Part shown: positions 33,784 through 34,186 of the stretch, in pieces
Numbering within the stretch: position 1 is the stretch's first letter
How the letters are laid out: every line of letters begins with the position of its first letter
DNA from: Eublepharis macularius
Taxonomy: Eukaryota; Chordata; Lepidosauria; Squamata; Eublepharidae
Assembly (NCBI RefSeq): GCF_028583425.1
Contig: NC_072798.1
Location: forward strand, 8,310,501-8,374,500
Direction of reading: 5' to 3'
Length of the DNA: 64,000 bases
Position numbers and translations under genes: made by a program
Notes under the pieces: generated by a model
What the model was told of the DNA's origin: nothing
What the model saw: only the letters and a program-made list of their open reading frames with translations
Databases searched by the model: none

Positions 33784-34186
33784 GATGGTTGTTGGGGGTT
33801 TTCCGGGCTGTATTGCCGTGGTCTTGGCATTGTAGTTCCTGACGTTTCGCCAGCAGCTGTGGCTGGCATCTTCAGAGGTGTAGCACCAAAAGACAGAGAT
33901 CTCTCAGTGTCACAGTGTGGAAAAGATGTAGGTCATTTGTATCTACTCAGGAGGGGTGGGAGGGGGGTCCTGAGGGGTGGGAGGGGTCCTGAGTAGATAC
34001 AAATGACCTACATCTTTTCCACACTGTGACACTGAGAGATCTCTGTCTTTTGGTGCTACACCTCTGAAGATGCCAGCCACAGCTGCTGGCGAAACGTCAG
34101 GAACTACAATGCCAAGACCACGGCAATACAGCCCGGAAAACCCCCAACAACCATCGTTCTCCGGCCGTGAAAGCCTTCGACAATAC
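33784..34186. mobile_element. Fold-back retroelement P2 with hammerhead-like core, copy 2
   Basis: A 403-bp hairpin with exact 13-bp duplication GAAGAAGGGGAAT (33771-33783, 34187-34199). The arms extend past the 'gagatctctcagtgtcacag' block to a GGAGGGG-rich hinge at 33960-34000. Hammerhead-like order on the right arm: CTGAAGA 34064-34070, GCCAGC 34072-34077, GCTGGC 34085-34090, GAAAC 34091-34095, GTC 34096-34098. CCT 34061-34063 pairs with AGG 34099-34101. The tail 'catcgttctccggccgtgaa' is unpaired. Confidence 0.9.

What the first reader, a model, noticed from the sequence alone, without database searches (positions are those of the whole stretch)
33784..34186. Short fold-back retroelements (P2) that carry a hammerhead-ribozyme-like core in each arm
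Three complete copies (10889-11197, 33784-34186, 53922-54337) have exact 12-13-bp target duplications, inverted arms, and a constant unpaired 3' tail. In the right arm the order is CTGAAGA, GCCAGC/GCTGGC stem, GAAAC, GTC, with CCT/AGG as start of stem I and TTGG/CCAA further out. That is a type I hammerhead layout with a GUC cleavage site. Penelope-like elements are known to carry hammerheads. The fold-back form with no coding part looks like a nonautonomous derivative. A transcript read through both arms would carry a ribozyme only in the right arm, and the left arm would be its complement, which might mask it.
Basis: partly seen in the sequence, partly recalled or inferred. Interest (0 to 1): 0.75.

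Follow-up and report, generated by a model that had tools for sequence, protein, structure and literature searches.

The report
Two-ended Penelope insertions carrying hammerhead motifs
The fold-back repeats are short insertions of a Penelope-type retrotransposon whose control region carries a minimal self-cutting RNA motif, and their shape suggests that both ends of the broken target DNA were extended by copying the element's RNA.

Summary
In detail: three elements with exact 12-13-bp target duplications, arms 96-99% complementary, and a 32-base unpaired tail. The core CTGAAGA / 6-bp stem II / GAAA / CGTC has a hammerhead layout but no closed stem III. No Rfam hammerhead model hits it, and the predicted monomer fold is not the hammerhead. 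It aligns to the Anolis Poseidon (PAc) element, whose hammerhead was shown by mutation to cleave, with protein present. The 'nonautonomous fold-back' reading is weaker: the arms are a Penelope pseudo-LTR plus the first 28-39 codons of its ORF, and an ORF-bearing copy elsewhere in the genome has the same layout. In 364 kb I scored 26 inverted pairs of two Penelope families: 23 clearly have a tail on exactly one end, 2 are borderline, 1 has none, none clearly has two. In PAc the tail is the interval between two reverse-transcription start sites, and that enzyme cuts and extends both DNA strands. Best reading: two-ended target-primed reverse transcription, a different start site at each end. Arms of one copy are more alike than arms of different copies, suggesting one source. 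Inverted pseudo-LTRs with one tail are already in print; I saw no two-ended reading in the papers searched. Genome-wide counts could not be run.

The parts
33771..33783 (.). left target-site duplication GAAGAAGGGGAAT
   Evidence: exact match to 34187-34199
33784..33952 (-). left arm of copy 2: antisense pLTR plus first ~28 codons of the ORF, without tail; starts at the proposed proximal RT start site
33838..33878 (-). hammerhead motif of the left arm, on the minus strand
   Evidence: descriptor hit at 33875 minus
33987..34154 (+). right arm of copy 2: sense pLTR, hammerhead motif, ORF start
34061..34101 (+). minimal hammerhead motif, predicted cut after C34098; 4-nt palindrome A34094-T34097 in place of stem III
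   Evidence: descriptor; homology to the PAc hammerhead
34070..34186 (+). start of the Penelope ORF (ATG at 34070), overlapping the hammerhead; 39 open codons through the tail
34155..34186 (+). 32-nt tail, from the proposed proximal start site (ORF about +86) to the distal one (+117)
   Evidence: alignment to PAc; tail score 32 of 32
34187..34199 (.). right target-site duplication
10889..11197 (.). copy 1: fold-back, tail 11166-11197, TSDs 10877-10888 and 11198-11209
53922..54337 (.). copy 3: fold-back, tail at right end, TSDs 53909-53921 and 54338-54350; the tail frame carries a stop codon
32126..32277 (.). asymmetric fold-back: left arm with a borderline, diverged tail (score 12), right arm only ~36 nt, no tail, no TSD found
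35514..35695 (-). single-armed, untailed P2 copy, 5' truncated, no TSD found
36471..36900 (.). P1 (second Penelope family) fold-back, clear tail on the left end, 13-bp TSD; right-end tail score 13
37700..37900 (.). P1 fold-back, tail on left end only, 12-bp TSD
19546..19741 (.). P1 fold-back, tail on right end only, no TSD found

Best explanation
These are insertions of a Penelope-like element related to Poseidon of Anolis. Shown: head-to-head inverted pLTR pieces, mostly flanked by TSDs, one end with the tail and the other without. Inferred: the element's endonuclease makes a staggered cut; both freed DNA ends prime reverse transcription of the element's RNA, one at the distal start site (leaving the tail) and the other at the proximal site about 32 nt upstream. 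The two cDNAs, each stopping at its own 5' point, are joined in the middle and the staggered ends filled to give the TSD. Both templates come from the same source, either two RNAs of one locus or one RNA copied twice. The template is usually not cut at the hammerhead. In an inserted fold-back the ribozyme would be masked by the other arm, so its role, if any, belongs to the parent RNA.
For: The right arm and tail align to the PAc RNA; in copies 1 and 2 the right end falls at ORF +117, within the published start region +111-118. In PMC11167929 (text parts 1-3 of 4 read) PAc cuts and extends both strands, and the tail is the interval between its two start sites. Of 26 inverted pairs (9 P2, 17 P1), a tail score of 18 or more is found on exactly one end in 23, the best end is borderline (12, 14) in 2, and 1 has none; two clear tails in 0. 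TSDs in 8 of 9 P2 pairs (one with a mismatch) and 10 of 17 P1 pairs. Site-1 ends also occur alone, e.g. P1 L008 7358-7452 with a 12-bp TSD. Among 19 pairs with both ends at the usual sites (9 P2, 10 P1) the untailed arm outreaches the tailed one by 17 nt or more in 5 (L015 7804, L020 4141, L005 36, L009 4291, window 37700). L027 has the same ends with ORF sequence inside. Within-copy arms differ by 1.9% against 3.9% between copies in P2 (permutation p 0.0001) and 7.5% against 9.0% in P1 (p 0.005). None of 20 P2 arm hits begins near the hammerhead cut; 18 of 20 run through it.
Against: In vitro, PAc showed no difference in start site between top and bottom strands, so the one-tail rule needs an added ordering step. 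Unequal arms could come from later deletion at the centre of an unstable palindrome, and likeness of the arms from later conversion between them. Pairs were grouped after looking, and 7 of 17 P1 pairs have one end at neither usual site. L010 8483-8841 has no tail, and window 36471 scores 13 on its second end where random 80-mers have a 99% point of 10. TSDs were not found in 1 of 9 P2 and 7 of 17 P1 pairs. 8 of the 30 extra stretches lie beside the window, so the sample is not random. The RT domain of the P2 parent was not recovered, and its endonuclease-like fragment gave no Pfam hit above cut-off. The coordinate of the second PAc start site is not in the text I read.
Confidence: 0.68

Rival explanations
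1. Self-priming: one strand is copied, folds back and is copied again, giving the inverted arms. This is the model favoured for Adineta Penelope elements in PMC3846280 (passages), on an antisense template.
For: Arms of one copy are closest to each other; some centres are near-perfect palindromes, e.g. 2 nt between the arms in copy 1.
Against: A self-primed second arm should run through the tail into the target, yet it ends at the other end of the tail. In 5 of 19 pairs each arm holds sequence that the other lacks, although later central deletion could mimic this.
Confidence: 0.15
2. The fold-back is itself a nonautonomous master element: a hairpin RNA starting at the left end is reverse transcribed from the tail.
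For: It explains one tail per copy and the constant left end.
Against: By eye the nine P2 centres differ and show no shared apex. Untailed single arms and ORF-bearing copies exist. Copy 3 shares two variants with the ORF-bearing L010 and with none of the other eight fold-backs. It needs a promoter that starts exactly at the arm end in two families.
Confidence: 0.1
3. The hammerhead-like core is a relic or coincidence of coding sequence and does not cleave.
For: No Rfam hammerhead hit (P1); no stem III; it overlaps the ORF start; PAc RNA did not cleave without protein. In the minimum-energy fold of the isolated copy-2 strand stem II forms, but CUGA of the core pairs with UCAG across the cut site instead of the CCU/AGG stem I, and the predicted dimer is a long duplex, not a paired hammerhead. 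Confidence raised from 0.25 to 0.28 on rechecking.
Against: The homologous PAc motif cleaved with protein, lost this with C3G or G8C and partly regained it with both. The core recurs in a second family, also with a palindromic 4-mer. Core bases changed in 0 of 192 non-CpG cells, stems 2 of 297, rest 34 of 1806; Fisher p 0.07 for core, 0.02 for core plus stems, which is weak since arms are related and the region is coding.
Confidence: 0.28

Closest known systems
Poseidon of Anolis carolinensis (PAc), PMC11167929 (text parts 1-3 of 4 and passages read)
   Same: ORF start inside the hammerhead, GAAACGUC core, tail, RT start region at ORF +111-118
   Different: Different sequence; the paper describes tandem copies, here the copies are mostly head-to-head inverted pairs
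Adineta vaga Penelope families, PMC3846280 (passages read)
   Same: inverted pLTRs, 31-bp tail optionally on one of them, TSDs of 8-10 bp in the cases seen, palindromes at the junction
   Different: the word hammerhead does not occur in its main text; explained there by self-priming
Minimal Penelope hammerheads (Cervera and De la Pena 2014 and a 2017 paper on dimeric variants, both recalled and not held; review passages in PMC6155905)
   Same: type I layout, no helix III
   Different: here the 4-nt palindrome (ACGU in P2, AGCU in P1) is seen in two families of one genome, inside inverted pairs
Animal retrozymes, PMC7229834 (passages read)
   Same: type I hammerhead in a non-LTR retroelement; weak helix III in amphibians
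   Different: described as tandem repeats spreading through circular RNA; the passages seen mention no Penelope ORF start or inverted arms in them

Membership tests
Penelope-like elements (Penelope/Poseidon clade) | homology to a characterised member | tested here: met
   alignment over about 131 columns to the PAc pLTR and ORF start
Penelope-like elements (Penelope/Poseidon clade) | pLTRs, direct or inverted, with optional ~31-bp tail on one | tested here: met
Penelope-like elements (Penelope/Poseidon clade) | GIY-YIG endonuclease in the parent ORF | tested here: inconclusive
   ORF upstream of the P2 pLTR in L027 and L010 reads GVYRIPCSCGQVYIGTT; Pfam gives only T5orf172 at E 0.016, below cut-off, for L027 and nothing for L010; BLASTP to the P1-side domain E 0.063. 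The P1-associated ORF at window 41921-42394 passes the GIY-YIG cut-off
Penelope-like elements (Penelope/Poseidon clade) | telomerase-like reverse transcriptase | not tested
   no copy reaching the RT core was recognised in the sampled DNA; the protein search of the genome did not complete
Hammerhead ribozyme, type I | conserved core CUGANGA, GAAA, UH with room for stems I and II | tested here: met
   descriptor
Hammerhead ribozyme, type I | predicted fold is the hammerhead | tested here: not met
   stem II forms but a competing helix replaces stem I in the monomer, and the predicted dimer is a duplex
Hammerhead ribozyme, type I | closed stem III | tested here: not met
   A15.1-CG-U16.1 would leave a 2-nt loop; the palindrome could pair between two RNAs only (letters)
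Hammerhead ribozyme, type I | hit to an Rfam hammerhead model | tested here: not met
   P1 likewise
Hammerhead ribozyme, type I | self-cleavage at GUC | not testable with these tools
   shown for the PAc homologue only with protein

The most novel reading that the evidence does not exclude
Penelope elements insert by a two-ended reaction in a paired complex. Two template RNAs of one locus are held together through the palindromic 4-mer that takes the place of stem III. The two start sites are allotted one to each DNA end, and the hammerhead is active only in that dimer, so it reports on pairing rather than processing the transcript.
Probability: 0.2. Interest if true: 0.8.

Novelty: new member of a known kind. 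Interest (0 to 1): 0.52.

Why it matters
How Penelope elements complete an insertion is open: PMC11167929 says that further steps are yet to be validated, and PMC3846280 could not choose between models. A rough extrapolation (6 P2 insertions, 5 of them fold-backs, in 300 kb outside the window; genome size) gives tens of thousands of fold-backs in this genome. They are a natural record of that reaction, and the one-tail rule can be counted directly and would separate the models.

Tried and rejected
Rfam hammerhead search: no hit; the Hsp83_3_UTR, mir-3940 and snoZ162 matches lie far below gathering score and follow the long hairpin. Scans of viral contigs and genome contigs for P2 letters: only L001, a 20-21-base chance match in unrelated DNA. 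Full-text search for P2 letters: 0 papers. The test for resistance of core bases to mutation is too weak. The fold of the isolated core did not give the hammerhead. Autonomous P2 element: only its 3' part was seen (L010, L027). Left out of the 26 pairs: L017 1678-2357 and window 42449-42841 (complex), window 32503-32761 (array on one strand), direct pairs L005 2985-3151 and L028 3807-4159, and the single-armed hits; window 19546-19935 was cut to 19546-19741. Two P2 singles were scored too (no tail). The random control drew from the same DNA, so its maximum includes real tails.

Full report
What is there. Two more P2 copies lie in the window, 32126-32277 and 35514-35695. I sampled 300 kb more in 30 stretches; 8 of the 30 are beside the window, so the sample is not random.

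What the arms are. The right arm with tail aligns to the Anolis Poseidon RNA printed in PMC11167929, score 105 for copy 2 against a maximum of 26 in 200 shuffles. It contains the ORF start, with 39 open codons through the tail in copies 1 and 2 and a stop in copy 3. In L010 and L027 the same pLTR follows an ORF that reads GVYRIPCSCGQVYIGTT, endonuclease-like by eye, although Pfam gave no hit above cut-off. P2 is therefore best taken as a Penelope-like element and the fold-backs as pairs of its pLTR ends.

The ribozyme motif. A descriptor with core, stem II, stem I and a fixed 2-nt gap in place of stem III finds 35 sites in 264 kb and 0 in ten mononucleotide shuffles. By their letters all belong to P2 or to a second family, P1. 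The descriptor cannot find hammerheads with a closed stem III. In 32 of 35 the four bases in place of stem III form a palindrome (a quarter would by chance, but these are two families, not 35 independent cases); the three others read ACAT or ATGT, as expected from CpG decay. Such a palindrome cannot close in one RNA. Rfam models do not see either family. The predicted monomer fold keeps stem II but pairs CUGA of the core with UCAG across the cut site, and the predicted dimer is a long duplex. In PMC11167929 the homologous motif cleaved only with protein, lost activity with C3G or G8C and partly regained it with both. A hammerhead is likely by homology, but cleavage of this sequence is not shown. 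A review says that Penelope hammerheads usually lack helix III (PMC6155905, passages).

The one-tail rule. I scored tail similarity at both ends of 26 inverted pairs, 9 of P2 and 17 of P1. Clear (18 or more) on exactly one end: 8 of 9 and 15 of 17. Borderline: P2 32126-32277 (12) and P1 L005 501-821 (14). None: P1 L010 8483-8841. Clear on both: 0 of 26; the highest second-end score is 13, at window 36471-36900. The 99% point of random 80-mers is 10. In P1, 10 of 17 pairs have both ends at one of the two usual sites; 7 have one end elsewhere.

Why two-ended priming. In vitro PAc cuts and extends both strands and starts at two sites whose interval is the tail. The ends seen here coincide with the distal region (+117 against +111-118) and, by alignment, with the other end of the tail; the exact coordinate of the second PAc site is not in the text I read. 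TSDs flank 8 of 9 P2 pairs and 10 of 17 P1 pairs; random flanks reach score 9 in 21 of 1500. Untailed single P1 insertions with TSD, e.g. L008 7358-7452, show that the proximal site works alone; the two untailed P2 singles had no TSD found. In 5 of 19 pairs each arm holds sequence that the other lacks. L027 shows the same ends with ORF inside. Arms of one copy are more alike than arms of different copies, so both probably come from one source, unless later conversion between arms is the cause. The in vitro paper saw no strand difference in start site; the strict rule in the genome is not explained by it and is the point most worth testing.

The hammerhead and the template. 18 of 20 P2 arm hits read through the cut site and none begins there, as in PAc where uncut RNA was the main substrate. 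In a read-through RNA of each of the three window fold-backs, all 47 ribozyme bases pair with the other arm in the predicted fold.

Known and new. Inverted pLTRs with a tail on one of them, TSDs and junction palindromes are in print for rotifer Penelope, as are hammerheads in Penelope. The searches of the open library showed me no paper on two-ended priming for Penelope in titles and abstract starts; I read parts only of PMC11167929, PMC3846280, PMC6155905 and PMC7229834. PMC3636483 (an R2 endonuclease model that mentions Penelope) was not read, and subscription papers are not covered.

Noticed in passing
L002 7539-8088, L008 6673-6934; also L015 1319-1618, L005 501-754 and window 32503-32761: P1 copies hold tandem arrays of a ~52-bp unit that contains the hammerhead (10.7 and 5.0 copies by Tandem Repeats Finder in L002 and L008; the others from BLAST pieces), in several cases between two inverted arms. 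This could come from copying small ribozyme circles or from template slippage.
   Followed up: partly
window 41921-42394 (+): ORF with a GIY-YIG endonuclease domain (Pfam E 7.4e-06), followed by P1 pLTR pieces at 42449-42841: perhaps a remnant of the parent of the P1 family.
   Followed up: partly
window 25676-27844 (+): 722-codon open frame of tetratricopeptide repeats without a break, resembling TTC30/IFT70 (name recalled).
   Followed up: partly
window 57543-57734: Fold-back with two 96-nt arms, 92% complementary, no spacer, unlike P1 or P2 by eye; possibly another mobile element.
   Followed up: no
window 2975-3044, 4226-4297, 28458-28527, 61777-61838: Four tRNA hits in Rfam that look like heads of tRNA-derived SINEs.
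   Followed up: no
L010 8483-8841 and L011 1256-1650: Two P1 copies about 2.4 kb apart on contig 1 with mirrored layout, which may be one inverted duplication and then not independent.
   Followed up: no
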